From positions 1-64,000 of the forward strand of contig JAPPGG010000006.1 in assembly GCA_028875055.1 (NCBI GenBank): a DNA stretch of 64,000 nucleotides, given 5' to 3'. The stretch comes from Chloroflexota bacterium. GTDB lineage: Bacteria; Chloroflexota; Dehalococcoidia; Lucifugimonadales; UBA3495. Within the stretch, counting starts at the first letter, position 1, and every line of letters starts with the position of its first letter. Position numbers and translations under genes: made by a program. The notes under the pieces were generated by a model. It was given only the letters and a program-made list of their open reading frames with translations, did no database searches and had not been told where the DNA came from. Below are positions 25,017 to 41,966 of the stretch, in pieces.

Positions 25017-25729
25017 ACCGGTAGCTCCCCGATTGGTCAATGCCGATTGGATACTATGATGCCCATTAGGTTGCTGAGCGTCAATGACTCAATTGTAATC
25101 CAAAGAACATTTGGTTCCCCCTTCCCCCTTATCACTTCGACTCCTGGTATATTTGGAAGGGCCTGGATTGAGGAGTCTCACAGATCCCCCAACCACATCT
25201 CGAAGATGGTTCCACCTACCATTCAATGGGGCCTGCCCATACATCCAAGCTAGGCTAGTTGAGTGGCGGACGGCGAAGCCGGGATTCTGTCCCTGGTCCT
25301 CGCTACGCCGTACCCATACGTCCCATGGTTCCTTGGAAGGGTTTTCGTGAAACAAGCTGATCCGAAGCCAAGGTGAAGACTACCTACATTGACCGCCAAT
25401 TGCTGAGTGGTCACCGCCATGAATGCGAAAGTCGGTATCGAGTCGGGTTAACTGCATATCCCACCTTGGCTTAGTTTTGGTGCCTGAGGAACAGGGCAGC
25501 ATTACAGGAAAGGGTCAGCCAGTTGCCGGCTGGGCTGACCGACCGCAGAGACACGGTTAGACGGCGCTGCCGAACAGTCCTGCAGCCTAGAGCGGAGACG
25601 TTGCTACAAGACTCCCATCTCATTATGGTTGTCCGACAGATGCACATCCGACCTTGCCTTTGGTAGAGCTAGAACGTTCCGGCATCCCTGTCCTTCCGAT
25701 TCTCGCGTACGCTCTACTCAGGGACAAGA
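25017..25729. other. Lower-GC spacer with one arm of an inverted repeat
   Basis: About 710 bp. It contains one copy of the inverted repeat (25175-25227) and otherwise no convincing gene; the short frames here have no RBS or family likeness. It should hold the promoters of the divergent ptuA and glycosyltransferase genes. Confidence 0.4.
25175..25227 (-). repeat. Inverted repeat, left copy
   Basis: Read on the - strand this copy gives ggtaggtggaaccatcttcg followed by agatgtggttgggggatc. It matches the copy at 27238-27294 on the + strand at roughly 85% over 50 bp, with a shared core cttcgagatgtggttgggg. A short third piece (catcttcgagatgtggcag) lies near 27361. The two long copies bracket the glycosyltransferase and a decayed gene. 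Confidence 0.65.
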
Positions 25730-27294: not shown

Positions 27295-27564
27295 TGCTAG
27301 CACGACCCTTACCAGTAGTTCGAGCCTCGGCGGCAGGCCGAAGGGGCCGGCAAATGACGCCATCTTCGAGATGTGGCAGAGGAGCCTTGGAGTCTTCAGT
27401 ACCTATGGCCTTCAGTGATGACAGCTAACTTGCTTGCCCTACGTTGCTCAGTATCCCCGAACCGATCTGCGAAGAGGTTGCGTATCCCAGGCTTGGTTGC
27501 TATCCTTGGATGGATCCAAGGATGCCGTCCAAGAATGTGGTGCGAGCCTTCAAGGGAGTCCGTA

Positions 27565-27807
27565 ATGAGCAATCGAATACTGCCTACCGGACGGTGCTGG
27601 TGTGGCTGTGGCGAAGATGCAGCCCGGGGTTCCTTCTTCCTTCCTGGCCACGATAAGAAGGCTGAATCAGCAGTCATTCTCGTGGAGTATGGAGGGGTCC
27701 CCGAATTTCTCCAGCAACACGGCTATGGGCCGGGTGGAAAAGAGCCTATGGTCGTGCTGAAGAAGTGGCGCGAGACGACGAAACGATTGCAAGATGGCAA
27801 AAAGTAG
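27565..27807 (+). CDS. Small Cys-rich FLPGHD-motif protein (80 aa)
   Basis: Begins MSNRILPTGRCWCGCGEDAA and continues SFFLPGHDKKAESAV, a small treble-clef-like pattern (CxCGCG plus a conserved GHD) that I have seen in proteins from mobile and defence loci but cannot name. ATG 27565 sits behind cctcaagggagtccgta (good RBS, spacing 6). It is the first small gene of a run leading to the ParB/DruA/DruE operon, with only 10 bp to the next start, so it may belong to that system. Function unknown. Confidence 0.6.
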   Translation: MSNRILPTGRCWCGCGEDAARGSFFLPGHDKKAESAVILVEYGGVPEFLQQHGYGPGGKEPMVVLKKWRETTKRLQDGKK

Positions 27808-27817
27808 GGAGGAAACC

Positions 27818-27925
27818 ATGGTCTCCAAGTGCCTCATAGGACTCACAATACCGAATCCGAATCAACCCCTTCCGTTAGAAGACAGGCAGAAACTGGGAAA
27901 GCCCATTGAGGCAGATGTAAGATGA
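27818..27925 (+). CDS. Short peptide gene coupled to next ORF (35 aa)
   Basis: ATG 27818 is preceded by tagggaggaaacc, an excellent RBS. The peptide reads MVSKCLIGLTIPNPNQPLPL and ends PIEADVR. Its TGA overlaps the ATG of the next frame (ATGA at 27922-27925), a hallmark of translational coupling. Too short to classify; it could be a leader or a genuine small component. Confidence 0.4.
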   Translation: MVSKCLIGLTIPNPNQPLPLEDRQKLGKPIEADVR

Positions 27926-28170
27926 CCGCCTACGCAGGGGACACAGCAGGCCGAGTTGGCCGTGGGTTTTGGCTAGATGGGCAGTACTATTCGTCCATCA
28001 GAGAGTGGTGTTCGACAGTTTATCGCCCTGTATGGCACAAGGGTGATGGCTCGGTTGAAGCCGGTCACATTCATAGCTGTAGCAAAGAGATGGCAAGAGC
28101 ACTATATCGCAGACAAGAAATTGGCGCACCTCAGTTTGATGATGGAGGTCCTCCGCCTTCAGTTACATAG
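27922..28170 (+). CDS. Hypothetical 82-aa protein before parB-like gene
   Basis: Coupled by ATGA to the 35-aa frame. The sequence GRGFWLDGQYYSSIREWCST is plausible protein, but the C-terminus turns Pro-rich and an alternative +1 frame (27977-28207, containing VTFIAVAKRWQEHYIADKK) also looks coding. A frameshift joining the two is possible, giving one protein of roughly 95 residues that ends 26 bp before the ParB-like start. No family is recognised. Confidence 0.4.
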   Translation: MTAYAGDTAGRVGRGFWLDGQYYSSIREWCSTVYRPVWHKGDGSVEAGHIHSCSKEMARALYRRQEIGAPQFDDGGPPPSVT

Positions 28171-28232
28171 GTCGGTAACTATCAAGCACCTGCAGCTTCA
28201 TCCGTGATTCTATACCAAGGAGACCGATTGCC

Positions 28233-29573
28233 TTGCCACACATGACTGCCAATGGCCAGATAAAGCACATCCCTCTGGACGCGTTGAGGCCTGGTCCTTG
28301 GCAACCAAGGAAGGCGTTTAGCGAGGAGGAACTGGCAGAGCTTGCAGATTCGATCAAGTCGTTTGGTGTGTTAACTCCCCTAAGAGTAGTGGCCGATCAG
28401 AAATCCCAATCCTACCTGGTCGTTGCAGGCGAACGCCGCTGGCGTGCGGCTACAGAACTAGGTCTCGCCACTTTGCCCTGCATCGTGATGGATGAGGGTA
28501 TGAACGATGAGCTACTCCACGAATTGGCAATCTTGGACAATCTCCACCGTGCCAACCTTCTTCCTGCTGAAGAGGCACGCGCGGTTGCCTACCTTGATCG
28601 TCTTGGGGTCAAGCAACAGGAGATCGCATCAAGACTTGGGAAGAGCCCTTCGTGGGTAAGTCAACGCTTAGCATTATCTCGGCTCCCTGAAATTGTCCTT
28701 CGCCACCTTGACAACGGAACCGTTACACGTGAGGAGGCTCTCGCACTCACTAAGCTACAGGAATACCCAGATATCATAGAAGAATGTCTAGAACCCGCGG
28801 GTAACCTGTTAAAGGCTAGGTTGGGCGCCCACGTACCAAGTTCTATCGGCCCTCGTGTTCAAGCGGTCATGCGTCTCTTTGAACTTCAACGCCAACAGAA
28901 GGATTGGGCGATTAAGATGAAGGGAGCCGGGCATCACGTCCTTGAACAAGCACCTAAGGACGGTGACCACCGCTACGTCGAACTAGTGCAGGGATCTGAG
29001 ATGGCCCGAGTGCATCAGAACGCAAGACTATCATGCGAAGCTTGGGCCTGGAAAAACTATCGGCCGCAAAGATATTGCAATAATCCCCAAGCATTGCACG
29101 CGGCGATAGTGGAAGCTCCCTCAACCGATCCGTGGGAACGAGCTAGACAAGAGGAAAGCCTAAGGGTCCTCGACCGTGAGGCATCTCGTGATGCGGTAAT
29201 CAAAGCTTGGCTTGCAACAACCCGTGGTTTATCGTCGACAGAACTGGGAATCCTCGCGAGAGAGAGAATAGACGCGATTATCGAGATTGATAGCCGCCTT
29301 CTCGCTAGGATCGGAAGCTGGCTCGGTGCTGAAGGGGACCGACCCAAGCAAGCCGAGATTGCCCAAAGGGAACTTGACACCGCCAGTGAGCGCCGTTTGA
29401 TCCAGATATGGTTTCTCCTTGAGGCGGCTCACTCTATGTCTTATTCCGTCGTTCCCAATTGGCTTGCCCCGTGGCTTCAAGACCTTGGGTTCATCGAACC
29501 GGATCGTTCTGATCGACTGGGAGGGGACAAGTCCAGCGAGAATGGTCTGGGTTCCGATGAAGGTGTGGCTTAG
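28233..29573 (+). CDS. ParB/RepB/Spo0J-like protein heading defence operon (446 aa)
   Basis: The N-terminal ParB/sulfiredoxin domain starts IPLDALRPGPWQPRKAFSEE, continues LADSIKSFGVLTPLRVV and has the nucleotide-binding GERRWRAATELGL; in chromosomal ParB this site binds and hydrolyses CTP. A KorB-like helix-turn-helix follows (LGVKQQEIASRLGKSPSWVS, about residues 127-146). The remaining 270 residues are unlike partition ParB and have no known motif. No parA lies nearby. Instead, the DUF4338 gene starts 18 bp downstream, so it is probably the DNA-loading or regulatory subunit of the system. TTG 28233 was chosen for its RBS (ccaaggaga, spacing about 10); ATG 28242 is the alternative. Confidence 0.85.
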   Translation: MPHMTANGQIKHIPLDALRPGPWQPRKAFSEEELAELADSIKSFGVLTPLRVVADQKSQSYLVVAGERRWRAATELGLATLPCIVMDEGMNDELLHELAILDNLHRANLLPAEEARAVAYLDRLGVKQQEIASRLGKSPSWVSQRLALSRLPEIVLRHLDNGTVTREEALALTKLQEYPDIIEECLEPAGNLLKARLGAHVPSSIGPRVQAVMRLFELQRQQKDWAIKMKGAGHHVLEQAPKDGDHRYVELVQGSEMARVHQNARLSCEAWAWKNYRPQRYCNNPQALHAAIVEAPSTDPWERARQEESLRVLDREASRDAVIKAWLATTRGLSSTELGILARERIDAIIEIDSRLLARIGSWLGAEGDRPKQAEIAQRELDTASERRLIQIWFLLEAAHSMSYSVVPNWLAPWLQDLGFIEPDRSDRLGGDKSSENGLGSDEGVA

Positions 29574-29591
29574 ATCTGGGAGGGGCTCAAC

Positions 29592-30815
29592 GTGCAACGA
29601 TTGACAGAAAAACAGGAGGTCTTGCCAGGTTTTGAGGAGCTGTATTCCTCACAGCCTCCTCAAATGGACATCGATTCGCTAAGGGAGGATATCCTGAAGC
29701 ATGTGGAGGCATTGAGGCTGCCGAGCTGGGCAGGTCTCGGCGATCCCTCTGCCTTAACAAAGGATGGAATCAGGGCAATGCACGGAGCGCAGCGCGGCGA
29801 CATCCAAGCGCGTGAAATGGCTGCCATAGGAGCAAAGGTAGAAGATCTGATGCAGCATTTCGCGAACGGCGAAGACATCCGTCCTGATGCCATTGATCCC
29901 GAGCTAGTTGCGGTTCGGGGTGACGGACTGAATTCCAAACTCTTTAGATTGGCCACGCTATTATGGTCCGTGCCGGTTTCTAAGGGGTACGGGCGGAGGA
30001 TGCGTTATCTGGTTCGCGATAGAAGTAATGGCAAGGTGATCGGAGTGTTCGGTCTTACAGACCCCGTATTCAACCTTCGCGCACGGGACGTTTGGATAGG
30101 TTGGAACGAGCAGCAGAGGCGTGCTGCATTAGTGCATTGCATGGACGCATACGTTGTTGGCGCGGTTCCGCCGTATTCTTATCTCCTGGGAGGAAAGCTC
30201 GTAGCGTCCCTCATAGGCTCAGCCGAGGTGGGTGAGGCTTTTGCAAGGCGATACGCCGCAACCAAAGGCCAGATAAGCAAGAGCCACAAGGCTGCGAGAC
30301 TTGTCTTGGTCACGGTCACATCGGCTCTTGGTCGGTCCTCGCTCTACAATCGGCTCAAGCTGATAGAACAAGGTGTTGAGAATCCGAGGCTACTTGTGGA
30401 ACTCATTCGTGTAGGAGCCACAGTAGGGTTTGGCCACTTCCACTTGTCAGAGAGCCTGTTCACTCAACTCCGTGAAGTTGTGAAAGCAAATGGCCACGAA
30501 TACGCTGACGCCCATCAATATGGTGATGGACCTAATTGGAGGATTCGCCTGTCGAGAGTAGGATTGGCGATGCTTGGTCTGGACCCGGACTTGCTCCGTC
30601 ATGGAATCACAAGGGAGATTTTTGTGATGCCTCTAGCCCTAAACTACAGGGATTTCTTGCTCGGGGAGGCTGAGGAAGCTTATCTCGACCGTCCTACGAT
30701 TCGAGAGATATCCTTGGCGGCACAAAGGCGCTGGATCTTGCCTAGGGCGAATAGGTGTCCAGACTACGCCGCGTTCCGCAAGACCCAGATTCTCGATGAA
30801 CTCCGCAAATACTAG
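29592..30815 (+). CDS. druA: DruA-like DUF4338 protein
   Basis: 407 aa. The DUF4338 (Druantia DruA) signature is clear: RRMRYLVRDRSNGKVIGVFG, LTDPVFNLRARDVWIGWN, MDAYVVGAVPPYSYLLGGKL and SALGRSSLYNRLKL, followed by GFGHFHLSESLF. In Druantia type I, druA accompanies the giant DUF1998 helicase druE; the biochemical role of DruA is unknown. Some DUF4338 proteins also occur alone or near transposases. Here it sits between the ParB-like gene (18 bp) and the DruE-like helicase (20 bp), as an operon member. GTG 29592 follows ctgggaggggctcaac. Assignment to the family is firm; transfer of Druantia function is inference. Confidence 0.85.
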   Translation: MQRLTEKQEVLPGFEELYSSQPPQMDIDSLREDILKHVEALRLPSWAGLGDPSALTKDGIRAMHGAQRGDIQAREMAAIGAKVEDLMQHFANGEDIRPDAIDPELVAVRGDGLNSKLFRLATLLWSVPVSKGYGRRMRYLVRDRSNGKVIGVFGLTDPVFNLRARDVWIGWNEQQRRAALVHCMDAYVVGAVPPYSYLLGGKLVASLIGSAEVGEAFARRYAATKGQISKSHKAARLVLVTVTSALGRSSLYNRLKLIEQGVENPRLLVELIRVGATVGFGHFHLSESLFTQLREVVKANGHEYADAHQYGDGPNWRIRLSRVGLAMLGLDPDLLRHGITREIFVMPLALNYRDFLLGEAEEAYLDRPTIREISLAAQRRWILPRANRCPDYAAFRKTQILDELRKY

Positions 30816-30835
30816 GCATACCTTGGGAGGGCGAA

Positions 30836-33800
30836 ATGCCTGTCTCGCCTTTCGAGAGTTTTCAACAAGCCAAAGAGAGCATCTGTTCCTATCTGGAAAC
30901 GGCCTATAAGATATCCGACCAGGCTGTCTTTGCGGAACGGGCACTTCTGCTACGCGAGGAGGTCCGTCCTCCTCTTACTCCGGCCGTAGCTCAAGAACCC
31001 TTCATTGAGTCGACACCGGCGTTTCCAGGGTCCAGATTCCTTGCAGACTTGGCGAAGGCGGTGCACCAGATGCCTGCCGAGTTGTCCGACTTAGCCTCAT
31101 TCGGGATGCCTGTCCGTCATTTTCCTCTTTACGACCACCAAGCCAAGGCACTTGAGCAGACCTACGGCACAACGCCAAACTTGGTTGTCGCCACGGGCAC
31201 CGGCTCAGGAAAGACCGAGATTTTCTTGTTGAGTGTTCTGGGAGACATACTCCGAGAGGCTTTATCAACTCCATGGGCAGCTCCTGTAAGAACCGCCGAG
31301 GCCGGCACATTCAACTCGACACAGCAACAGTGGCTGCATAGCCGCCGCCACGAACGGCGCCAAGCCGCAGCCCGAGCCATCATCTTGTACCCGATGAACG
31401 CACTGGTCAACGATCAGGTTCAGCGGTTGAGGCGCGTATTGGCCGACCCGGCTGCTGAAACTTGGCAGAAGGCATCGCTCCAAGGGAACCTCATCTACTT
31501 TGGAATGTACACCGGGGACACCGAGCCAACAGGGCACTGGTTACGGCCGGGTCCCCGAAGCAGGTGGGACCGGTATGTCAATGAGGTCACGTCGACTTGG
31601 AATCAGCTTTCTCAGGAACATCGCATGCGTGGAAACTGGCCTCGCATCGATGGTCCTGAAATGCTCTGCCGTTGGGATATGCACAAGGCACCCCCTGACA
31701 TCTTGGTAACGAACTATTCAATGCTGGAGTACATGCTCGCCCGAGCAATTGAGGCACCGATTTTTGAGCTCACTAAGAGGTGGCTGAAGACAACACCAGG
31801 AGCGCGACTGACCCTCATCTTGGACGAGGCCCACACGTACACCGGTGCACGGGGCACCGAGATTGCCTATCTCATCCGACGGCTCAAAGAGCGCCTGGAT
31901 ATTCGACCCGGTGACGGTAAGCTTCGCTGCATAGCTACGAGTGCCAGTCTTCCAATGCATCAGAATGCGCAGCAGGAGATTTCGCAGTTCGTTGCCGACC
32001 TGTTTGGTGAGCCTATCGCCTCGTTCTCTCCGATCATTGCCTCTTCTCCCCCGCCGGTTCCAAGCCACACCCCCTCGCTTCAGGAGTTGGATGCGTTTGC
32101 CACGTTCGGTGAAGCATTCGACCCAGAGTACCCGGAACCAGCGATTGGCGCGCTCCTTAACGCTCTTTCACTCGGTCCCCTCGATTCCAACATCAGTCCT
32201 GAGGTTTCTTTATACCGAGCGGTCAGGCAACAGCCACAGATCATCCGGGCTAGAACGCTTACGACTCGAAACGCTAAGCAACTTGACGCGTTGGCGCACG
32301 AACTCTGGGGGTCGGTCGGTACGTCATCCCAACGGAGGCAGGCTACTACGGGTCTGTTTGCCGCTGGAGCCTATGCTCGGGAGAAAACTGTACAAGACGC
32401 GCCTCCGCTCATATCGAGCCGAGTGCACATGATGTTTCGCGGTATTCCTGGGCTGTGGGCTTGTATGGATCCCAATTGCTCGGAGATACCGCAACCCTTT
32501 GGAGTCCCCGCCGTGCCAAGTCGACCAGTAGGGCGCCTCTACAAAGAGCCCGCTCCGTGGTGCGAGTGTGGAGCAAGAGTTCTAGAGGTCTTTACATGTC
32601 GCGTATGCGGGCTCATGTTCCTCGGAGGCATTCCCGACCAAGCGACCGGCAGCTTGTGGCCGTGGGCCAACGACCTAGAGGGAGGACGTCCTGATCTTAA
32701 CGACTTCGTGCTCTTCGGCGTCGAACCGCCGGGATCTCAAGTAGAGTACAGGTCGATTAGAACAACGCTTCCCATTGCAGCCGGTCACCCGGAGGCTCGG
32801 CTTGGGTACCAGGTCCGCGGAGCGGTGGTCGGAGGCGTTCAAACGCCTTTCCCAAACGAATGCCCTCGGTGTCACAACAGGCGAGGGCGGGGTGCCGAAG
32901 GGCGAGAGATTGTTGAGCCACTACGGACCAAGGGGTCAAAGTCGTTTTCGGTACTAGTCGAGGATGCCTTTCGTTTGCAGCCTCCTACACCTAGCGTAGA
33001 CACAGCAAACAAGGGACGCAAGTCATTGACGTTTAGTGACAGCCGCCAGGACGCGGCAATGTTGGCAGGCGACTTGGAAATAGACCACAACCGTGATCTC
33101 TTCCGGCAGATGGCTTACCGTTTGTTGACAGGTTGTGGTCGATGCTTGGGTTTCGGAACCCTCCAGCCTGGCCCAGGTCCGCTGGTTGGAAATACAGGCG
33201 CACAACCTAGCGGTCCCCAAACTTGCTCCGACTGTGGAGGTTCAGGCTCGCTCCCAGGTCATGCCTCCCCCATACCAGTCGGTGATTTGCGCCAGAGAAT
33301 CCTACACCTTGCCCACAGGGCACGGATCAATCCTACCTTGGATGACCTGCCAGCTTACTTTGCTCAACTCACCCCTTTCTATAACCCCAACGATGGCTCA
33401 GCTCAACAGCACATCAATGCGTCCATAAGAAACGAGATCGCCGCACCCGATTTCGGCCTGGAACCCATGGGACTAGCTGCGTGGCGCGCAACTTTTCCTC
33501 CGCAAGCGGCGGGTGCGCTTCCTGGACTGTCCTCGCAGGAGACTGATGAACTCATCGATGCGGTTATGCGCCTACTTGCGACTGAGGACGTGTTGCTCCC
33601 CCCATCACTTGACCCAAGGGACTGGGGCGAGCTGGTGCCATATTGGGACCGTAGGTTGCTGGTATTGCCACCAAGCGGGGGTAACCACCTAGTTGTATTT
33701 GACCCCAGCCGCCGGACCAAACTCGGTAGGTTTCTCAGGTCGGTGGCTGAAACGCTCGCCAACCGAGGCAGGATTCAGGGGCCCAGCGCAGTCGACCAGT

Positions 33801-36253
33801 GGCTTGCAGCATTGACGGCGCCGCTCTTCACCATATTGCAGCAGTTCGGGCTTGTTACAGTTGACGCCAACAGTATCGGCTACGGAATCAACATTGACAG
33901 GTTCCAACTGGAGTTGGTCGACGATCAAGTCCAAGTGTGTCATGCCTGTGCTTATATAACCAACAGGGCCGTCTTGAATGTATGCCTCCGTTGTGGGGAC
34001 GAAACAGAGCTCCGTTCCACAACGCAGATTCAAAACTATTACCGAAGGTCTGTGGGATTTGCTCGACCGGGTAGCCTACATCCTGACCCCTTCGCGCTCC
34101 GAGTTCTTGAACACAGCGGGCAAATAGAGAAGCCTGAAGCCCGTCGCTACGAATTGCAATTTCAGGATGTCTTTCTTGCTAACGAGAATCCCGACGACGT
34201 ACGTGTAGATGCCCTAAGCGTTACGACCACTATGGAAATGGGCATCGATATCGGCAACCTTCTCAGCGTCGGGCTCAGAAACGTACCTCCCACGGTTGCA
34301 AACTATCAGCAGCGTGCTGGAAGGGCGGGCCGACGAAGCAGTGGAGTAGCCACTGTGTTGACCTTCGCCCAGAACCGAAGCCACGACCAGTTCTACTTCG
34401 CTGAGCCACCCAAGATTGTTTCCGATCCACCCAGGATCCCAAAGGTGTATGTTGACAACCGAGTTATAGTCCAGCGGCACGCCCGGGCCTTGGTGCTTCA
34501 GCGCTTCTTCCATCAGTGGTCCCCTACTGCATCCGGCCAAGTCATCGGGGGAACCCTCAACGCTTGGGGAAGTGTGAATCAGTTCCGCCAGAACAACGGC
34601 CCACAAGAATTAGCGAACTGGGTTAGGGCAAATCAGATTCCACTCGTTGACCGCTGTAAGCTCGTAGTTGAGCCATCGTTCCACCAAGAAGTCAACAGTT
34701 GGGTTTCTTCCATTCCGGCCGAGGTTACACAGCATATTCAACCCAGACCACCTGGAGAGGACGTACTAGGTAGCCTTCTGGACGTTGGCTATTTGCCTAG
34801 GCACGCCTTCCCGCTTGACGTGGTTTCGCTCTGGACAGAGCCTCCTCCGATTGGAGCCAACTACCGGGAGCGTGGGGTGCAGCGCGATCTGGGCATCGCA
34901 CTGTCGGAATTCGCCCCTGGAGCCGAGATCGTTAGGAAAAAACGTATCCACAGAGTAGTTGGCCTGTACAACCAAGATAACTTCCACCCCGACTACCAGC
35001 CTGAGGGAAGGTTTGTTGAGTGTCGTGACTGCCATTCGGTTCATTTGTCCGGGATGGGTGGAGCGGCTCCGGCCCATTGTAACGTCTGTCAGGGAGCAAG
35101 GCTTTCAAGTATGCCCGTTGTTCGCCCACCGGGGCTCTGCACCGAGTGGTCAGGTCCAGACGCTGGAGGGCGTCGGTACCTTGGAGGGGGCCGAGAGCGT
35201 GCCGGCTCAGCAACTCCTGCTAGGTTAGCCATTGGAGACGATTCGTACACATCGCCGAACAATGTGCAGCCTGGCTTCGCGCCCAATCTTCATGTACTCG
35301 TCAGAGTTGGTGACCTGCATGTTGTCAATCGAGGCCCGGACATCAATCAACCTGGCTTCCGTATCTGCCCTCATTGCGGTCGGGCTCTCGGCGACGGAGA
35401 GACGGTACACACTTACCCTGCCCACATACCGCCGTATGACGGTCCCAATAGAGGGGCACGGGCGGGGCAGCAGTGCCCCAACGTCAATCCTTCTGCCAAT
35501 AGAGTCTTGCTAAGCCATAGGTTCCCGAGCGAGGTAGTGTTACTTGGCACGGATCTCCCACAGTCTATGGATGCCGATGTCCGGGGTGCGAGTGGACTGG
35601 CGGTGTGGCTTTCCTTTGGTACGGTTGTGCTGAATGCGGCTTCTCGCGTACTTCAAATCAATCCCGAGGAGCTTAGAGTCGACGTGCGGTCTGCACGACG
35701 TCCCGGAGGCCGAATACATGGCGAAGTGTACATGTACGACACCTTGCCTGGAGGTGCTGGTTACGCCCGCGACGTCGAAAGCAACCTTGAACCAATCTTA
35801 AGACAGGCACTCGCTGATAGTCAGACATGTACCGACTCTCAGTGCACCAGTGCTTGCTATAGCTGCCTTCTAGACTACCAAAACCAGTTTCACCATGCGT
35901 CGCTGGATAGGCGGCTAGGTCATGCCGTCTTGGATTTCCTACTCAATGGCGCTCAGCCGTCTCTAACTCAGTTGGAGGTTGATTTGGCAGCCTCTCGGCT
36001 TATTCCATACCTGCCAAGTGGTTGGACGTCACTAGGGCAAGCAACCGTAGCAGGACAGTATTTCCCCCTTACAGTCACAGATGCCCGCGGGGACCAAATC
36101 GGGATACTGCCAAGGCACGCACTCGAGGCTGAACCTGACTTAAGCCTGTTGCAACAGCTTCAAGCAAGTGGAATTCGCTGCTGCTCTTATACGGACTTCG
36201 ACATGATTCGCCGCCCATTCTGGGTAATTGACCAGATAGCCTCACAGCCATAG
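30836..36253 (+). CDS. druE: DruE-like giant DEAD/DEAH helicase with DUF1998 (1,805 aa)
   Basis: SF2 helicase of the Lhr/DruE/BrxHI class. Walker A VVATGTGSGKTEIF (about residues 116-129), motif II LILDEAHTYTGARGTE (about 325-340), motif VI YQQRAGRAGRRSSGVA (about 1156-1171). Several CxxC pairs lie between and after the motor lobes (CECG/CRVCG near 575-590, CPRCHNRRG near 680, CGRCLGFG near 765, CHACAY and CLRCGD near 1034-1055). The C-terminal DUF1998 region has YDTLPGGAGYARDVE and the four-Cys cluster CTDSQCTSACYSCLLDYQNQ (about 1663-1682). DruE-type helicases are core parts of Druantia; BrxHI is a relative in BREX. ATG behind cttgggagggcgaa. DNA translocation is expected; no nuclease domain is seen. 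Confidence 0.9.
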   Translation: MPVSPFESFQQAKESICSYLETAYKISDQAVFAERALLLREEVRPPLTPAVAQEPFIESTPAFPGSRFLADLAKAVHQMPAELSDLASFGMPVRHFPLYDHQAKALEQTYGTTPNLVVATGTGSGKTEIFLLSVLGDILREALSTPWAAPVRTAEAGTFNSTQQQWLHSRRHERRQAAARAIILYPMNALVNDQVQRLRRVLADPAAETWQKASLQGNLIYFGMYTGDTEPTGHWLRPGPRSRWDRYVNEVTSTWNQLSQEHRMRGNWPRIDGPEMLCRWDMHKAPPDILVTNYSMLEYMLARAIEAPIFELTKRWLKTTPGARLTLILDEAHTYTGARGTEIAYLIRRLKERLDIRPGDGKLRCIATSASLPMHQNAQQEISQFVADLFGEPIASFSPIIASSPPPVPSHTPSLQELDAFATFGEAFDPEYPEPAIGALLNALSLGPLDSNISPEVSLYRAVRQQPQIIRARTLTTRNAKQLDALAHELWGSVGTSSQRRQATTGLFAAGAYAREKTVQDAPPLISSRVHMMFRGIPGLWACMDPNCSEIPQPFGVPAVPSRPVGRLYKEPAPWCECGARVLEVFTCRVCGLMFLGGIPDQATGSLWPWANDLEGGRPDLNDFVLFGVEPPGSQVEYRSIRTTLPIAAGHPEARLGYQVRGAVVGGVQTPFPNECPRCHNRRGRGAEGREIVEPLRTKGSKSFSVLVEDAFRLQPPTPSVDTANKGRKSLTFSDSRQDAAMLAGDLEIDHNRDLFRQMAYRLLTGCGRCLGFGTLQPGPGPLVGNTGAQPSGPQTCSDCGGSGSLPGHASPIPVGDLRQRILHLAHRARINPTLDDLPAYFAQLTPFYNPNDGSAQQHINASIRNEIAAPDFGLEPMGLAAWRATFPPQAAGALPGLSSQETDELIDAVMRLLATEDVLLPPSLDPRDWGELVPYWDRRLLVLPPSGGNHLVVFDPSRRTKLGRFLRSVAETLANRGRIQGPSAVDQWLAALTAPLFTILQQFGLVTVDANSIGYGINIDRFQLELVDDQVQVCHACAYITNRAVLNVCLRCGDETELRSTTQIQNYYRRSVGFARPGSLHPDPFALRVLEHSGQIEKPEARRYELQFQDVFLANENPDDVRVDALSVTTTMEMGIDIGNLLSVGLRNVPPTVANYQQRAGRAGRRSSGVATVLTFAQNRSHDQFYFAEPPKIVSDPPRIPKVYVDNRVIVQRHARALVLQRFFHQWSPTASGQVIGGTLNAWGSVNQFRQNNGPQELANWVRANQIPLVDRCKLVVEPSFHQEVNSWVSSIPAEVTQHIQPRPPGEDVLGSLLDVGYLPRHAFPLDVVSLWTEPPPIGANYRERGVQRDLGIALSEFAPGAEIVRKKRIHRVVGLYNQDNFHPDYQPEGRFVECRDCHSVHLSGMGGAAPAHCNVCQGARLSSMPVVRPPGLCTEWSGPDAGGRRYLGGGRERAGSATPARLAIGDDSYTSPNNVQPGFAPNLHVLVRVGDLHVVNRGPDINQPGFRICPHCGRALGDGETVHTYPAHIPPYDGPNRGARAGQQCPNVNPSANRVLLSHRFPSEVVLLGTDLPQSMDADVRGASGLAVWLSFGTVVLNAASRVLQINPEELRVDVRSARRPGGRIHGEVYMYDTLPGGAGYARDVESNLEPILRQALADSQTCTDSQCTSACYSCLLDYQNQFHHASLDRRLGHAVLDFLLNGAQPSLTQLEVDLAASRLIPYLPSGWTSLGQATVAGQYFPLTVTDARGDQIGILPRHALEAEPDLSLLQQLQASGIRCCSYTDFDMIRRPFWVIDQIASQP

Positions 36254-36278
36254 GTATCCTAGCGGGAGAGGTGAGCAC

Positions 36279-37100
36279 ATGGAGCATGAAGTAGAGGGGT
36301 TTGTCGCTGGCGACCAACCGGGAAACACAGATCTCACACGGTTGCACAGTGCCTTGGTTGGGCTGAAGAAACAGCTAGATAGGTACAGTCGACTCACGTC
36401 ACTCGCGGTTGAAGGACGAGATCTGGACGCCAAACAGATGCTGAGCAGGACTGGAAACCCAGCCCCCGAGTTACTTGAAAACTTGGCGGCTACCAAAGCG
36501 GCCATCGAGTCATTTCCCCTTCAGTCGCACATTCAGGAAGCTGCCAATTGGAGCAGACTACACTACCACGATACACTCGAGAGGGTGCTTGATGAGTCAG
36601 GACTACGACGGAACGGGCAGTGGCCCAGCTATGTCATTGAGGACGTTGTCCGACTGGAACTGAATCTGGAACGCTATGAGGCTCTGATAGACGGCAAGGG
36701 GGCGGGTAGTCTAGAACCAACTCGCATCGTCGACAGAATCAAAGCCCGGCTCAACGAGTTGTTCGACAAGTCCCTCGATGTTGTGGTGTTCCTAGGGTCG
36801 TTGCAGAGTGCTCAGGAGAAGGTTGCGGCAGACCAGGGCCAATCGCCAACAGACTATGTGGACATTCGCAAGGTTTACGGGGTACTTCGCTCCCAACGCG
36901 GCATAGGGCAGTATTCGGAGGATAAGTTTGGGGCTAATGTGTATCGGCTCTTTCTCGAAGGAAGACCCAAAACCACTGATGGAATGACGTTAGAATTAAG
37001 CCCGGCCCAAAGTGCCTCCGGCGGCATATATATCCCATCTCCGGGTGGTGGTAACTACATCGCGGCGTTGCGCTTCGTTGACGGAGAGCCCGGTGGTTAA
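36279..37100 (+). CDS. Coiled-coil protein between helicase and BrxD-like ATPases (273 aa)
   Basis: Unrecognised soluble protein. Residues ~15-70 and ~125-190 are charged helices with heptad character (LHSALVGLKKQLDRYSRLTS; RIKARLNELFDKSLDVVVFL). The C-terminal ~60 residues are Gly-rich with beta strands (SGGIYIPSPGGGNYIAALRF). It lies 25 bp after the helicase (RBS gcgggagaggtgagcac) and its last 8 bases overlap the GTG start of the first BrxD-like gene, so it is part of the same translational unit. The position, just upstream of a DUF2791 ATPase, suggests a structural partner of that ATPase. Confidence 0.65.
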   Translation: MEHEVEGFVAGDQPGNTDLTRLHSALVGLKKQLDRYSRLTSLAVEGRDLDAKQMLSRTGNPAPELLENLAATKAAIESFPLQSHIQEAANWSRLHYHDTLERVLDESGLRRNGQWPSYVIEDVVRLELNLERYEALIDGKGAGSLEPTRIVDRIKARLNELFDKSLDVVVFLGSLQSAQEKVAADQGQSPTDYVDIRKVYGVLRSQRGIGQYSEDKFGANVYRLFLEGRPKTTDGMTLELSPAQSASGGIYIPSPGGGNYIAALRFVDGEPGG

Positions 37101-38328
37101 CCCGGCCGGGTCGGTCCCTCCGCTAAATCGAACCACCGCCAGGGCGATTATTGGTAGTCTGGCTGATGGTGTAGTCCCCCGTGTAGGGGCCCATCTGTTC
37201 ACGGCGGGACGAGAGCGTTGGCTACAAAGCCTCGAAGAAGACTTGGAGGACTTGGCAGACGAGGCCTCTCTAGACGGGCGCCTACGAATCATCAATGGTC
37301 GGAATGGTGACGGAAAGACTCACCTCATGCACCTCCTCCGACAGCGAGCCTTGGACGCTGAGTTTGTAGTCAGCTACGTCGTGATATCGGATCAGGTCCC
37401 ACTCCACCGTTGGGATCTTGTGTACAGTGAAATTGTAAGGAATCTGGCTACTCGAACTCAGCCCGACGCTCCGGGCCTCAGGGCTATTCTCAATCCACGC
37501 TCCCCTGATCCCGATGTGGCGACGGATTTCACGCAGAAAGCGATCTCAGCAAGAGCGTTGGGAGGGATACACCCTAGCTTTGCCGAGGCGATCTATCGAT
37601 ATTGCACTGAGCAGACCGTGAATGTCGACGCCGAGCAGGACATGCTCTTACTTGGCTCTTGGCTCGAGGGTCATGGCCATCGGCTAGCGGGCATGGGTGT
37701 CGGGGGCGTAGTTGATCGGACCAACGGTGCCGCTATGCTCCGGTCACTGGCGCTTACCCTCCAACATTTCGGTTTTCACGGCTTAGTGATCTTGGTGGAT
37801 GAGGTCGAAAGTGTTCTCAATCAGACCACGCCACGTCGACGCGAGTCATACCAGACACTGAGGCTACTCGTAGATCGCGAGAGCATGCCTGTCCGGACGC
37901 TGCTCGCCGCATCGACCACTCCCCCCATGTACACGGACCCGCAACGTGGCATGTCGACGTATCCCGCGCTTTGGAGTCGAGTTAGGATCGAATCATCTTC
38001 AGATTTTATCAACTACAATTCCACTCTAATTGATTTGACTCGCACGCCCTTATCCGAATCGGATTACGTTGCCATAGCTAGTTCCATTCGTTCGATACAT
38101 GCCCGGGCTAGGAACTGGGAACCCGTGGAGGAAGGAACGGAAGATTTCATCGCCGGTGCCGTTAAGATAGCCGCTAGTGGACGTCTAACACTCACATATT
38201 CTCCGACAAGGGTTTTCGTAAAGATGATTGCTGATACGCTAGAGCGGATGTATCAGCATGCCGACTTCCGACCTTCGACTGAGAGCTTGGTTCAACAGTT
38301 CGGCAGTACTGACCAACTCCTAGGCTAG
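37093..38328 (+). CDS. BrxD-like DUF2791 P-loop ATPase, copy 1 (411 aa)
   Basis: AAA-type ATPase: RIINGRNGDGKTHLMHLLRQ (Walker A at ~69-76) and GLVILVDEVESVLNQ (Walker B at ~231-245) match DUF2791/BrxD of BREX systems, which form complexes with other BREX proteins. The sequence opens NRTTARAIIGSLADGVVPR, also typical of the family. GTG 37093 overlaps the previous stop by 8 bp and has acggagagcc in front; the longer frame upstream of it has no RBS. A second DUF2791 protein follows 38 bp downstream. No pglZ, brxC/pglY or pglX methyltransferase gene is present, so this is not a complete BREX locus. Confidence 0.85.
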   Translation: MVNPAGSVPPLNRTTARAIIGSLADGVVPRVGAHLFTAGRERWLQSLEEDLEDLADEASLDGRLRIINGRNGDGKTHLMHLLRQRALDAEFVVSYVVISDQVPLHRWDLVYSEIVRNLATRTQPDAPGLRAILNPRSPDPDVATDFTQKAISARALGGIHPSFAEAIYRYCTEQTVNVDAEQDMLLLGSWLEGHGHRLAGMGVGGVVDRTNGAAMLRSLALTLQHFGFHGLVILVDEVESVLNQTTPRRRESYQTLRLLVDRESMPVRTLLAASTTPPMYTDPQRGMSTYPALWSRVRIESSSDFINYNSTLIDLTRTPLSESDYVAIASSIRSIHARARNWEPVEEGTEDFIAGAVKIAASGRLTLTYSPTRVFVKMIADTLERMYQHADFRPSTESLVQQFGSTDQLLG

Positions 38329-38366
38329 GCCGGCAATTCTCGGACCCATCGAATAAGGGACTAGGC

Positions 38367-39575
38367 TTGAAAGCTTTCAGTAAGCTAGAGGTTACACGCT
38401 CGCAAGCACGGCTGTTTCTAAAGGCGTTGTTGGACGGGGTACCCCCACACAGCCTCTTGACCAGCTGGCTGACTGTCGGCCAAGAGCAGTTGATGACTAC
38501 GTTTGATGACGACCTCAAATCTGTTGCAGATGGAGGTTTCCGCAGCCTCTTCCTATTGGGCAACCCCGGCTCCGGAAAGTCCCAGCTGCTGATTACCTTA
38601 GAGCACCTGGCCATGCAGCAGGGTTTTGTGTCTGCGTATTTCTCGCAAGATGTGCCGGGCAGGTTAGCATTCAATCGGCCAGACCAGATATACCGACGCA
38701 TCATGGAAACGATGCGACTGCCCGGAAACCCTAAAGGCAATGTGGATGTCCTCCAAGATGTTCTTGATGAATGGACCAACCGGTCTCTGCCGAGACTCAG
38801 GCATACAAATAGATCCATGGCAATCATGTACCAACTCTCTGAAGCTGGACTGCTGCCAGGCAGTGTAGAACAGATCCATCGAAGAACGAGCCTCGCACTG
38901 GTAGGTTACATTGTGGCGACAGAGCGGCAGGACGAAGATGCGAGGATGCAGTTCCTAAGTGCATTGAAGGGCCCAGGGCTTACCAACAGCCGGCTCATAG
39001 AGATCGCTAAAGACATTGAACTACGTATACCCAGATATGTGGGTTATACACCCAGTCAATATGATGCTGACTACTACTTCAGCCAATTACGAACGCTCAT
39101 CTTCATCTTCAAATCTCTCGGGTACAAAGGTATGGCCGTGCTCTTTGACGAGGTAACCGCTATCATTGACCTTGGTTCTCGAAGCCGGGAGAAGGCGTAC
39201 AAGGTACTTGATTCGCTCTTGGTAGACAGTTACCGTTTTCGTGGGTTGTACACGGTCTTTGCCTACATGCCGCCCTTTATGACTCAACTGCGCGCCGATC
39301 GCGGGATCATGGGTCATGAACACCTTGAACGATGGAGACATTTGGTCGACGACAGAATGATCGAACTATCGCCCTTGAGTAGAGCAGATCAAGAGGAACT
39401 GCTGCGCCGACTTTCTTACCTGCATGGCGTTGCATATGATTGGCCTGCAACGGAGGTTGTCGGGCCGCGTGCAGGATCCTTGGCGAGGGCGTATCAAGAA
39501 AGCGGGCTCCCCACGAGAGAATTCGTTAGAATGGCAATTGACTCATTGGACCTCCTATACGAGACACACAGATGA
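38367..39575 (+). CDS. BrxD-like DUF2791 P-loop ATPase, copy 2 (402 aa)
   Basis: Paralogous in layout to the preceding gene: RSQARLFLKALLDGVPPHSL at the start, Walker A LFLLGNPGSGKSQLL (~61-75), and Walker B GMAVLFDEVTAIIDLGSRSR (~254-273) with AYKVLDSLLVDSYRFRG following, as in DUF2791 proteins. Identity with copy 1 is low by eye, so the duplication is old or the genes were recruited separately. It probably forms a hetero-oligomeric ATPase with copy 1. TTG 38367 is the likely start (aagggactagg in front). It ends the operon; its TGA overlaps an ATG of a 19-codon frame that soon stops. Confidence 0.8.
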   Translation: MKAFSKLEVTRSQARLFLKALLDGVPPHSLLTSWLTVGQEQLMTTFDDDLKSVADGGFRSLFLLGNPGSGKSQLLITLEHLAMQQGFVSAYFSQDVPGRLAFNRPDQIYRRIMETMRLPGNPKGNVDVLQDVLDEWTNRSLPRLRHTNRSMAIMYQLSEAGLLPGSVEQIHRRTSLALVGYIVATERQDEDARMQFLSALKGPGLTNSRLIEIAKDIELRIPRYVGYTPSQYDADYYFSQLRTLIFIFKSLGYKGMAVLFDEVTAIIDLGSRSREKAYKVLDSLLVDSYRFRGLYTVFAYMPPFMTQLRADRGIMGHEHLERWRHLVDDRMIELSPLSRADQEELLRRLSYLHGVAYDWPATEVVGPRAGSLARAYQESGLPTREFVRMAIDSLDLLYETHR

Positions 39576-40020: not shown

Positions 40021-40635
40021 TTAGAGATCTTTGAGGAACTGGGTAAGGTCAGTGAAGGCAGCATTGGTCCAGGGGATGTATCCCTTTGCAGCCGCTATTC
40101 CCAGGCGGGTGTCGGGTTCATCTCGAGAAGCAAGGAAGGAGTTCATGCGGGCTTTGGCCAAACGGTTCTCAGGGGGTAATATACCCTTGCCGCTTAGACA
40201 CTCCATGAACTCGTTCACACACTCCATGGCAGTATCTTCGGCCAGCGCTGCCAGGCAAAGATTCTCCAGAGCGCCGTTGGACTCATTATCGGGCATCACG
40301 AAAATCTGAACCTTGATTGTCTCCCCTGCCGGCTGTAGGTATGTTAGTGGGACAGGCAACTTCGCGTTCCGAAGACGGCTTCTTACGCTTTGAAGGGCCG
40401 ACTGAGCACTTTCGTCCGCATCCTGAACAACGCCAATGGACTCCACGCTGTCAAATCCCACCACGTCCACGAAGTTGTTGATGAAGTTCCCCAGATTATC
40501 TTTGCCGTCATAGGCGTGTATCTGTATGTCATCAATGGCCAGGAACCTTAACAACTCTCTAAAAAATTCTTGCTCATCCCGTCCTTCGACCAGCAATTGC
40601 CTGGGAGTGTCAATACCAACCGTACGTTGCAGCAC
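40021..40635 (-). CDS. DUF3226 TOPRIM-like nuclease subunit (204 aa)
   Basis: TOPRIM-type fold: QLLVEGRDEQEFFRELLRFL carries the conserved Glu near residue 18, and ESIGVVQDADESAQSALQ the DxD-like acidic motif near 70. KVQIFVMPDNESNGALENLC is typical of DUF3226. TOPRIM domains cut DNA or RNA, or bind nucleotides, with Mg2+. The gene follows the AAA ATPase by 3 bp, an arrangement seen in split OLD-like, Gabija-like and PARIS-like defence pairs (in PARIS the TOPRIM protein is DUF4435). It starts at GTG 40635 with a ggaggtcat purine tract 11 bases upstream. It is a likely toxic effector released or activated by the ATPase. Confidence 0.75.
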   Translation of the reverse strand: MLQRTVGIDTPRQLLVEGRDEQEFFRELLRFLAIDDIQIHAYDGKDNLGNFINNFVDVVGFDSVESIGVVQDADESAQSALQSVRSRLRNAKLPVPLTYLQPAGETIKVQIFVMPDNESNGALENLCLAALAEDTAMECVNEFMECLSGKGILPPENRLAKARMNSFLASRDEPDTRLGIAAAKGYIPWTNAAFTDLTQFLKDL

Positions 40636-40638
40636 GAG

Positions 40639-41748
40639 TCAGATGACCTCCATGTTGAAGTCAAGGACGCTTTTCAATCTCTCGCGGTCAAATTTTACGG
40701 CCTTGTATTCGCCCTGCCCATTCTTCTCAATACGAAAGAGGCGGAGTTCATCCTCCTCGTCGGCTTCAAAGGCCCGGTACGCCGCACTGATGCACTCGTA
40801 GCTGTGGGTGGTGGCAAACAACTGCACGTCGTAGCTGCGGGCAAATGCGCCAATGGCCTTCCACACCTTTTCCATTACCGAGTGGTGGATTCCGTTTTCT
40901 ATTTCGTCCACGAGGACTATGCCGCCGGGGGCAGATGCGATGGCAAGGGCAAATGAAAATATCCGGGACATCCCGTCACCCAGAAGTTGCAGCGGTATCA
41001 ATCTTCCTATTCCAGTTTCCGCGTAGATGGTGGGGGTTACCCCGATAGATACGACAGCCAATCTCTTAAGCTTAGGCTCTACCTCTTGCAGGATTTCTAC
41101 TATGCTATTCTGAGAATTTTGGACCTCCAGGTCACTGAAGCGTTTAACGTCTTCGTTGCTGACGCTCGGACGCCGACCAGTCAACAAAACTCCGGTGGGG
41201 TGCCCATTTGAAGGCTGACCCTCTTGGTAAAACATCTCTATCCCAACTTCTCGGGTTCTGTGGTCAGGTTGCCTTTCAACCAATCGCCCTTTGCTTCTGA
41301 TCGGTACTTCCGATGCAGTGGAATACTCCATAACGACCACATCACTGGACCTCAATATCCTCGAAGCACTCGTTTGCGTGTCTAGGTGGCTGCCCTCGGT
41401 GTCCCGCAACGGGATTTCGAAGCTCGACGGGTCTTCAATCCACATCGTGAGATCTCGCGGTGTATCCTGCCAGCTACCCTCTGCGGACAAGACTATGGAC
41501 AATCTGCGATCAAAGCTGTAAAAGATGTTCGCCAGAAATCTCTCTGGATTTAATTGCTCCAACCCCCGGAAACTTTCGATCCTCGAGCACAAATCTGGAT
41601 TCACCTTTCCGTGATGCACCCACAACGCTTCCAACAACGCCGTCTTGCCTACGTTGTTCTTGCCCGCGATCAGGTTTATCCGGCCCATGCCTTCAACGGT
41701 AAGTTCGTCGAAGCACCGGAAGTTCTTGATGGTGAAGCTGCGGTACAT
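40639..41748 (-). CDS. AAA ATPase (OLD/PARIS-like AAA_15/21), partner of TOPRIM gene
   Basis: 369-aa SMC/ABC-like ATPase: FTIKNFRCFDELTVEGMGRI, Walker A LIAGKNNVGKTALLEALW (~27-44), signature region LLGDGMSRIFSFALAIASA (~253-271), Walker B GGIVLVDEIENGIHHSVMEK (~273-292) and QLFATTHSYECISA. This is the layout of AAA_15/AAA_21 defence ATPases that sense phage proteins. Met at 41748 is supported by aggagcaaaggaa; the frame extends 41 codons further without need. With the DUF3226 gene it forms a two-gene module oriented against the preceding operon. It lies at the edge of the defence island; valS begins 218 bp away, divergently. Confidence 0.85.
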   Translation of the reverse strand: MYRSFTIKNFRCFDELTVEGMGRINLIAGKNNVGKTALLEALWVHHGKVNPDLCSRIESFRGLEQLNPERFLANIFYSFDRRLSIVLSAEGSWQDTPRDLTMWIEDPSSFEIPLRDTEGSHLDTQTSASRILRSSDVVVMEYSTASEVPIRSKGRLVERQPDHRTREVGIEMFYQEGQPSNGHPTGVLLTGRRPSVSNEDVKRFSDLEVQNSQNSIVEILQEVEPKLKRLAVVSIGVTPTIYAETGIGRLIPLQLLGDGMSRIFSFALAIASAPGGIVLVDEIENGIHHSVMEKVWKAIGAFARSYDVQLFATTHSYECISAAYRAFEADEEDELRLFRIEKNGQGEYKAVKFDRERLKSVLDFNMEVI

Positions 41749-41966
41749 TTCCTTTGCTCCTGCCCGGGAGTCTGCCGGAAAGCCAGCGGTGTGCCTGCCG
41801 TCGGGTCCTGATTTCACACCATAGTTTAACATTGGGCCTATCTCCCCCAATAGACGCCCCTGCTGCCACAATGGTATATTTTCCCTACCTTGTTACGAAA
41901 CTGGGCTAATCCGTAACGGATTCGATATACCCGACACTCAGTCAGCCATAACCAGGGAGAGTTTTT

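What the first reader, a model, noticed from the sequence alone, without database searches (positions are those of the whole stretch)
27565..39575. Candidate new defence system: ParB + DruA + DruE-like helicase + coiled-coil protein + two BrxD-like ATPases
Seen: six adjacent same-strand genes (18, 20, 25, -8 and 38 bp spacings) encode a ParB-like protein, DUF4338 (DruA), an 1,805-aa DEAD/DUF1998 helicase, an unknown 273-aa protein and two DUF2791 ATPases, preceded by three tiny genes. Known: DUF4338 and DUF1998 helicases are Druantia parts; DUF2791 (BrxD) belongs to BREX. Missing: DruB-D, PglZ, BrxC/PglY and the PglX methyltransferase. Inference: a Druantia/BREX hybrid in which ParB and the BrxD pair supply DNA loading and sensing. 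I cannot check whether this arrangement is already described.
Basis: partly seen in the sequence, partly recalled or inferred. Interest (0 to 1): 0.9.

Follow-up and report, generated by a model that had tools for sequence, protein, structure and literature searches.

The report
Compact Druantia variant with ATPase pair
A foreign gene cluster in a Chloroflexota bacterium joins the core of a known phage-defence system (Druantia) to a small ATPase module that elsewhere partners other helicases, in a combination found in no other genome examined; this suggests that such modules are interchangeable, but nothing has been tested in cells.

Summary
Six same-strand genes (ParB, DruA, DruE helicase, an unknown 273-aa protein, two BrxD-like AAA+ ATPases) at 28233-39575 have the stated spacings, good ribosome-binding sites and one uniform foreign composition (GC3 0.52-0.58; next host genes 0.78-0.84).

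The 'Druantia/BREX hybrid' label is half right. DruE sits in a well-supported clade of 12 separate from canonical type I Druantia; 10 of its members lie next to DruA and lack DruB-D. Others in the clade partner a PD-(D/E)XK nuclease, BrxHII+PglZ or methyltransferases. The ATPases are not BREX BrxD by NCBI's cut-off (147 and 78 bits against 350), and no PglZ, PglX or BrxC is present. The 273-aa protein founds an unnamed family. At all 20 other loci in Chloroflexota where it was found, BrxD-like ATPases follow it (two of them unless the contig ends), then usually an SNF2 or Lhr-like helicase; the host carries one such operon elsewhere. In this window DruE is the only helicase. DruA is predicted to be a GNAT acyltransferase; its top structural match, tied with other GNATs, is phage Mu's DNA-modifying Mom.

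The exact combination occurs once in what I searched, and ParB's association is not conserved. Verdict: real, new variant of a known kind; mechanism inferred.

The parts
27565..27807 (+). small ORF, 80 aa (Cys-rich start); possible first gene of the operon
   Evidence: ORF inside 27373-27807; RBS-like AAGGGAG upstream; no homologue in fetched loci; no Pfam match
27794..27925 (+). small ORF, 43 aa; doubtful gene
   Evidence: no homologue in fetched loci
27922..28170 (+). small ORF, 82 aa, overlapping the previous one by 4 bp; doubtful gene
   Evidence: no Pfam match; no homologue in fetched loci
28233..29573 (+). ParB-family protein, 446 aa: ParB_N, HTH_ParB/KorB domains, GERR and NLxRxxL motifs; C-terminal 266 aa without relatives
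   Evidence: Pfam, NCBIfam parB_part 130 bits over cut-off 58; C-terminal part has no plasmid match and only marginal matches in 250 genomes
29592..30815 (+). DruA (DUF4338), 407 aa; predicted GNAT acyltransferase fold
   Evidence: Pfam DruA 268.7 bits, PADLOC DruA 442 bits; AF2 model pLDDT 82.7; GNAT matches incl. Mu Mom Z 10.1
30836..36253 (+). DruE, YprA-family SF2 helicase, 1805 aa, with GTGSGKT, DEAH, QQRAGRAGRR motifs and MrfA Zn-binding (MZB) domain
   Evidence: PADLOC DruE1 933 bits; Pfam; invariant motifs in alignment; tree
36279..37100 (+). 273-aa protein, founder of an unnamed family; helical N-terminal half, C-terminal half of unknown fold
   Evidence: homologues precede BrxD-like ATPases at all 20 other loci examined, two of them wherever the contig allows; low-confidence model
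37093..38328 (+). BrxD-like AAA+ ATPase 1; Walker A GRNGDGKT and Walker B LVILVDE intact (start GTG 37093 or later; longest ORF from 37012)
   Evidence: Pfam BrxC_BrxD 190 bits; motifs
38367..39575 (+). BrxD-like AAA+ ATPase 2; Walker A GNPGSGKS and Walker B MAVLFDE intact
   Evidence: Pfam BrxC_BrxD 115 bits; motifs

Best explanation
The cluster is a horizontally acquired, DNA-targeting phage-defence operon: a compact Druantia core (DruA + DruE) driven by a helicase-control module (273-aa protein + two BrxD-like AAA+ ATPases). Most likely working: DruE is the effector helicase acting on infection-associated DNA; the 273-aa protein and the ATPase pair bind DNA or a phage trigger and load or license DruE by ATP hydrolysis, as the same trio presumably does for SNF2 or Lhr-like helicases elsewhere; DruA, a predicted GNAT acyltransferase, marks DNA (self-protection) or processes a nucleotide; ParB is a CTP-clamp DNA binder used for regulation or recruitment, and may be a passenger. 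Shown: gene content, operon-like layout, uniform foreign composition, intact helicase and ATPase motifs, recurrence of each half in other genomes, predicted DruA fold. Inferred: defence activity, loading, DNA marking, any role of ParB.
For: DruA and DruE profiles of a validated defence system. DruE lies in a clade of 12 (support 1.0; 0.999 for 11) in which 10, window included, have DruA next to DruE without DruB-D and other defence modules are plugged in: PD-(D/E)XK nuclease, BrxHII+PglZ, DrmD-like helicase with a IIG-type methyltransferase, a methyltransferase-like protein. The 273-aa family is followed by BrxD-like ATPases at 20 of 20 other loci (two of them at 18; the other two are cut by contig ends) and then by a helicase at 12 (SNF2 at 8, Lhr/BrxHI-like at 4); one SNF2 is fused to an Mrr nuclease. 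In the window the trio has no helicase of its own but follows DruE by 25 bp. Walker A and B intact in both ATPases. GC3 0.52-0.58 across the six genes against 0.78-0.84 in valS, aroE, aroC. In same-genus genomes with a contig reaching far enough (G400, G401, G403) the cluster is absent beside valS while the neighbouring ATPase/DUF3226 pair remains. Related DruE (type III) is reported to be a helicase-nuclease engaging ssDNA-containing replication intermediates, partner proteins being thought to set the trigger (PMC13192584).
Against: The full combination was found once only. In 400 Chloroflexota genomes DruA occurs in 30 and a strong 273-aa-family hit in 18, sharing two genomes (the window's and G033, there on different contigs), about what chance gives, so there is no statistical link. 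No nuclease is recognisable in the operon although close relatives carry one. ParB has no conserved association. No experiment.
Confidence: 0.5

Rival explanations
1. Two independent defence cassettes landed next to each other: a complete compact DruA-DruE system and a degraded 273-aa/BrxD/BrxD system that lost its helicase, sharing only a transcript.
For: Each half exists without the other elsewhere; no association beyond chance in the phylum; the surroundings are a defence hot spot (ATPase + DUF3226 TOPRIM pair next door).
Against: Genes are tightly spaced with their own ribosome-binding sites, all frames intact, both ATPases keep Walker A and B, composition is uniform; a decaying cassette would be expected to show damage.
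Confidence: 0.3
2. DNA repair, replication or maintenance module of a mobile element (ParB partitioning plus helicase and loader), not defence.
For: ParB is canonical in its N-terminal half; DruE belongs to the YprA family, which includes repair helicases (PMC12458937); BrxD-like proteins are AAA+ ATPases (one search shows weak DnaA-type P-loop similarity).
Against: No ParA-type gene, replication initiator, integrase or conjugation gene was recognised among the cluster ORFs; DruA/DruE match defence profiles and the DruE lies in the Druantia part of the family.
Confidence: 0.1
3. A plain member of an already named Druantia or BREX subtype.
For: DruE1 and DruA are the best PADLOC profiles.
Against: DruB-D and the partners of types II-IV not detected; BrxD cut-off not reached; no paper in the held library joins these parts.
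Confidence: 0.07

Closest known systems
Druantia type I (DruABCDE)
   Same: DruA and DruE present; DruE1 is the best PADLOC profile
   Different: No DruB-D; DruA touches DruE; DruE 1805 aa in a separate clade, scoring 933 bits against 2331 for a canonical type I DruE (L159); extra ParB, 273-aa protein and ATPase pair
Compact DruA-DruE loci, e.g. Meiothermus taiwanensis pMtWR-220 (46% DruE identity) and several Chloroflexota MAGs
   Same: Same DruE clade, adjacent DruA
   Different: Those carry a PD-(D/E)XK nuclease, other modules or nothing recognisable in place of the 273-aa/ATPase trio; no ParB
273-aa family + two BrxD-like ATPases + SNF2 helicase operon of Chloroflexota (also in this genome, contig C14)
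   Same: Same order of the 273-aa protein and two BrxD-like ATPases
   Different: Helicase is SNF2 with an extra 160-230 aa protein; first ATPase lacks Walker A there but is intact in the window
Shango (SngABC) and BREX BrxD-BrxHI
   Same: BrxD-family ATPase working beside an SF2 helicase
   Different: One ATPase, TerB-domain SngA or PglZ/PglX partners; helicase is Lhr-like, not DruE
ARMADA (YprA helicase with BrxHII and PglX)
   Same: YprA-family helicase combined with BREX-type parts
   Different: No BrxHII or PglX here; DruA present

Membership tests
Druantia (broad sense) | DruE-type YprA helicase, the one component shared by all types | tested here: met
   PADLOC DruE1 933 bits, Pfam DEAD and MZB; grouped among Druantia helicases
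Druantia type I | DruB, DruC and DruD between DruA and DruE | tested here: not met
   DruA and DruE are 20 bp apart; no DruB-D profile match among the cluster and flanking proteins scanned
Druantia types II, III, IV | DruM/F/G, DruH, or DruF+DruL | tested here: not met
   No such PADLOC match in the six proteins or the three neighbours scanned; type IV definition from PMC8565338
BREX | PglZ, BrxC/PglY and PglX | tested here: not met
   No match in cluster; BrxC_BrxD family occurs in the genome only here and in the C14 operon
BREX BrxD (NF033438) | score over the equivalog cut-off of 350 bits | tested here: not met
   147 and 78.5 bits; broader Pfam family cut-off 22 is met
Shango | SngA (TerB) with SngB and SngC | tested here: not met
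   ATPases match SngB at 120 and 65 bits, but no SngA and no SngC-type Lhr helicase; the 273-aa family shows no profile similarity to SngA
ARMADA | BrxHII-type helicase and PglX-type methyltransferase beside the YprA helicase | tested here: not met
   Neither found in the cluster; definition from PMC12458937
273-aa + BrxD-pair module | 273-aa-family protein directly followed by two BrxD-like ATPases | tested here: met
   Window 36279-39575; same order at 18 other loci, 2 more cut by contig end
GNAT acyltransferases (DruA) | GNAT fold | tested here: met
   AF2 model, top VIA-align matches all GNAT-fold, Z 8.9-10.1; a prediction, not a solved structure
Mom-like DNA modifiers (DruA) | sequence relationship to Mom beyond the shared fold | tested here: inconclusive
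   Mom 8bv8 ranks first (Z 10.1) but within 1 Z of other GNATs; hhalign finds only a short hairpin, probability 0.9%
Antiphage defence system | protection against phage in cells | not testable with these tools
   needs expression and phage challenge

The most novel reading that the evidence does not exclude
A modular helicase-control system: the 273-aa protein and a pair of BrxD-like AAA+ ATPases form an exchangeable loader that has been fitted to three unrelated defence helicases (SNF2, Lhr-like, DruE), and in this operon it works with a DruA that modifies DNA as a GNAT enzyme, making compact Druantia a restriction-modification-like system whose mark is an acyl-type modification rather than methylation.
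Probability: 0.15. Interest if true: 0.85.

Novelty: new variant of a known kind. Interest (0 to 1): 0.58.

Why it matters
How Druantia senses infection and what DruA does are open questions; the mechanistic work found covers type III, which has no DruA. A compact DruA-DruE core that takes different partner modules would let the core and its triggers be separated experimentally. The predicted GNAT fold of DruA gives a direct, testable enzymatic hypothesis for all DUF4338 proteins. The 273-aa/BrxD-pair module, present in about 1 in 20 Chloroflexota genomes sampled and absent from the family libraries searched, is a candidate general helicase loader in defence.

Tried and rejected
Plasmid search with the 273-aa relative and with the ParB C-terminus: no match. 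Similarity of the 273-aa family to Shango SngA: rejected by hhalign. PDB profile hits of that family fall on its helical N-terminus, mostly designed bundles and H-NS coiled coils, and are probably compositional. The single-sequence model of the 273-aa protein (pLDDT 56) was too poor for a fold search. Direct DruA-Mom sequence homology: not supported. Promoter and terminator scans were no better than shuffles. No Rfam family. Mixed-term literature searches found no description of this combination, in open-licence papers only.

Full report
Observation. Pfam and PADLOC confirm ParB, DruA (DUF4338), DruE with the MrfA zinc-binding domain that replaced DUF1998, and two BrxC/BrxD-family ATPases; the 273-aa protein matches nothing in Pfam, NCBIfam, PADLOC or PHROGs. 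Each of the six starts has a purine-rich ribosome-binding site upstream, and the two longest gaps are 38 and 25 bp. GC3 is 0.52-0.58 in all six, while the next conserved genes (valS, aroE, aroC) are at 0.78-0.84. The three tiny genes are possible but unsupported by homologues.

Host and island. The window is contig C42 of a 3.75-Mb, 75-contig assembly. The phylum is Chloroflexota: genome G110, listed as same phylum, has a contig of the same length (6,346,587 bases) as Herpetosiphon aurantiacus CP000875. The class is probably Dehalococcoidia, from the small single-contig genomes listed as same class (inference). In congeners with enough sequence beside valS (G400, G401, G403) the ATPase + DUF3226 pair next to valS is kept but the six-gene cluster is absent; a fourth (G402) differs directly upstream of valS on a short contig. 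A search of 58 relatives (four same-genus, the rest same family or order) found no close homologue of ATPase 2. The cluster is thus a patchy island in a variable, defence-rich spot.

The Druantia half. The DruE of the window is 40-48% identical to a small set from Chloroflexota, Meiothermus plasmid pMtWR-220 and a Chitinophagales MAG. In a FastTree tree of 96 DruE proteins these form a clade of 12 (support 1.0), the window being sister to ten others once Herpetosiphon is set aside (support 0.999). Ten of the 12, window included, have DruA adjacent to DruE without DruB-D; canonical type I loci have DruA 4-6 kb away. Four add a PD-(D/E)XK nuclease resembling PADLOC's DruK and Cas4. L084 has BrxHII and PglZ in front; L083 has a DrmD-like helicase and a IIG-type methyltransferase; L091 has a methyltransferase-like protein. 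The core therefore takes varied partners. PADLOC gives DruE1 933 bits for the window against 2331 for a canonical type I protein. The published YprA-family survey reports inactivated Vsr nuclease domains at the C-terminus of Druantia I/II helicases (PMC12458937); I did not test this for the window.

The ATPase half. A profile of the 273-aa family finds 19 strong loci in 18 of 400 Chloroflexota genomes, the window's genome having two. With two further weak relatives (L061, L063), I examined 20 loci besides the window. All 20 have a BrxD-like gene directly after; 18 have two, and the other two contigs end there. Eight continue with a 160-230 aa protein and an SNF2 helicase, one of them fused to an Mrr nuclease; a ninth shows the small protein at a contig edge; four continue with an Lhr/BrxHI/SngC-like helicase. 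In the SNF2 type the first ATPase lacks Walker A (the second also fails the pattern in one case, L209); in the Lhr type, in L064 and in the window, both have it. The window's own genome carries the SNF2 type on contig C14. NCBI's BrxD equivalog cut-off is not reached by either window ATPase, so 'BREX part' is too specific: they are members of the broader BrxC/BrxD family.

Are the halves one system? For: an operon-like layout, uniform composition, intact motifs, and a trio normally followed by a helicase that here lacks its own but follows DruE. Against: no second instance among the DruE loci or genomes searched, and in 400 genomes DruA (30) and the 273-aa family (18) coincide in two, near chance expectation. 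The genome-wide DruE scan kept only the best 80 loci, so distant instances may have been missed.

DruA. A model from 27 homologues (pLDDT 82.7) has a GNAT fold; phage Mu Mom, which modifies adenine in DNA, ranks first by VIA-align (Z 10.1, 185 residues, 4.1 A) but is tied with other GNATs at Z 9-9.8; Foldseek alone gave only weak matches (best E 0.024), again acetyltransferases. Profile comparison gives no specific link to Mom. DruA relatives occur in Pelagibacter and Synechococcus phages and, by fold, in giant-virus proteins. A DNA- or nucleotide-modifying role is plausible, not shown. Searches for Druantia with Mom or GNAT in the held literature gave nothing.

ParB. Its N-terminal half is canonical, its C-terminal 266 aa have no real relatives in plasmids or 250 genomes. 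ParB-like proteins sit beside Mom-like acetyltransferases in two actinophages, a suggestive but weak parallel to ParB-DruA.

Conclusion. A real, intact, horizontally acquired cluster and a new variant of Druantia-type defence, combining a compact DruA-DruE core with an unnamed ATPase module. The name 'Druantia/BREX hybrid' should be dropped. Function is inferred throughout.

Noticed in passing
L060:9398-14849 (own genome, contig C14); also L206-L211, L213: Conserved five-gene operon in Chloroflexota: 273-aa-family protein, Walker-A-less BrxD-like protein, BrxD-like ATPase, 160-230 aa protein, SNF2 helicase (with Mrr nuclease in L211). Looks like an undescribed defence system.
   Followed up: partly
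L053:8615-14066, L054:5510-10961, L061:8661-13721, L063:122-6793: 273-aa-family protein, two BrxD-like ATPases and an Lhr/SngC-like helicase, a second recurrent arrangement.
   Followed up: partly
   Followed up: partly
window 40021-41871 (-): AAA ATPase (AbiL/AriA-like) plus DUF3226 TOPRIM protein beside valS, kept in same-genus genomes G400, G401, G403; resembles PARIS-type pairs and PADLOC candidate PDC-M38.
   Followed up: partly
window 23682-25040 (-): Second AAA_21/AAA_15 ATPase in the same low-GC stretch, next to a 140-aa ORF.
   Followed up: no
L247:2740-4038 and L248:2878-3990: DruA-like (DUF4338) proteins in Pelagibacter phage Mosig (beside 2OG-Fe(II) oxygenase and MazG genes) and Synechococcus phage S-T4.
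   Followed up: no
L243:2469-3621 and L244:2178-3561: ParB-like protein next to, or one small gene away from, a Mom-like acetyltransferase in Microbacterium phage Dropshot and Arthrobacter phage LeeroyJ.
   Followed up: no
L204:10567-12624 and L061:13740-15719: Convergent PLD/NgoFVII-like nuclease proteins directly downstream of two of the 273-aa/BrxD modules.
   Followed up: no
L037:15001-22826: Meiothermus plasmid DruE, nuclease and DruA lie between two transposase genes, so the compact system may move as a composite element; the nuclease gene is unannotated in the plasmid table.
   Followed up: no
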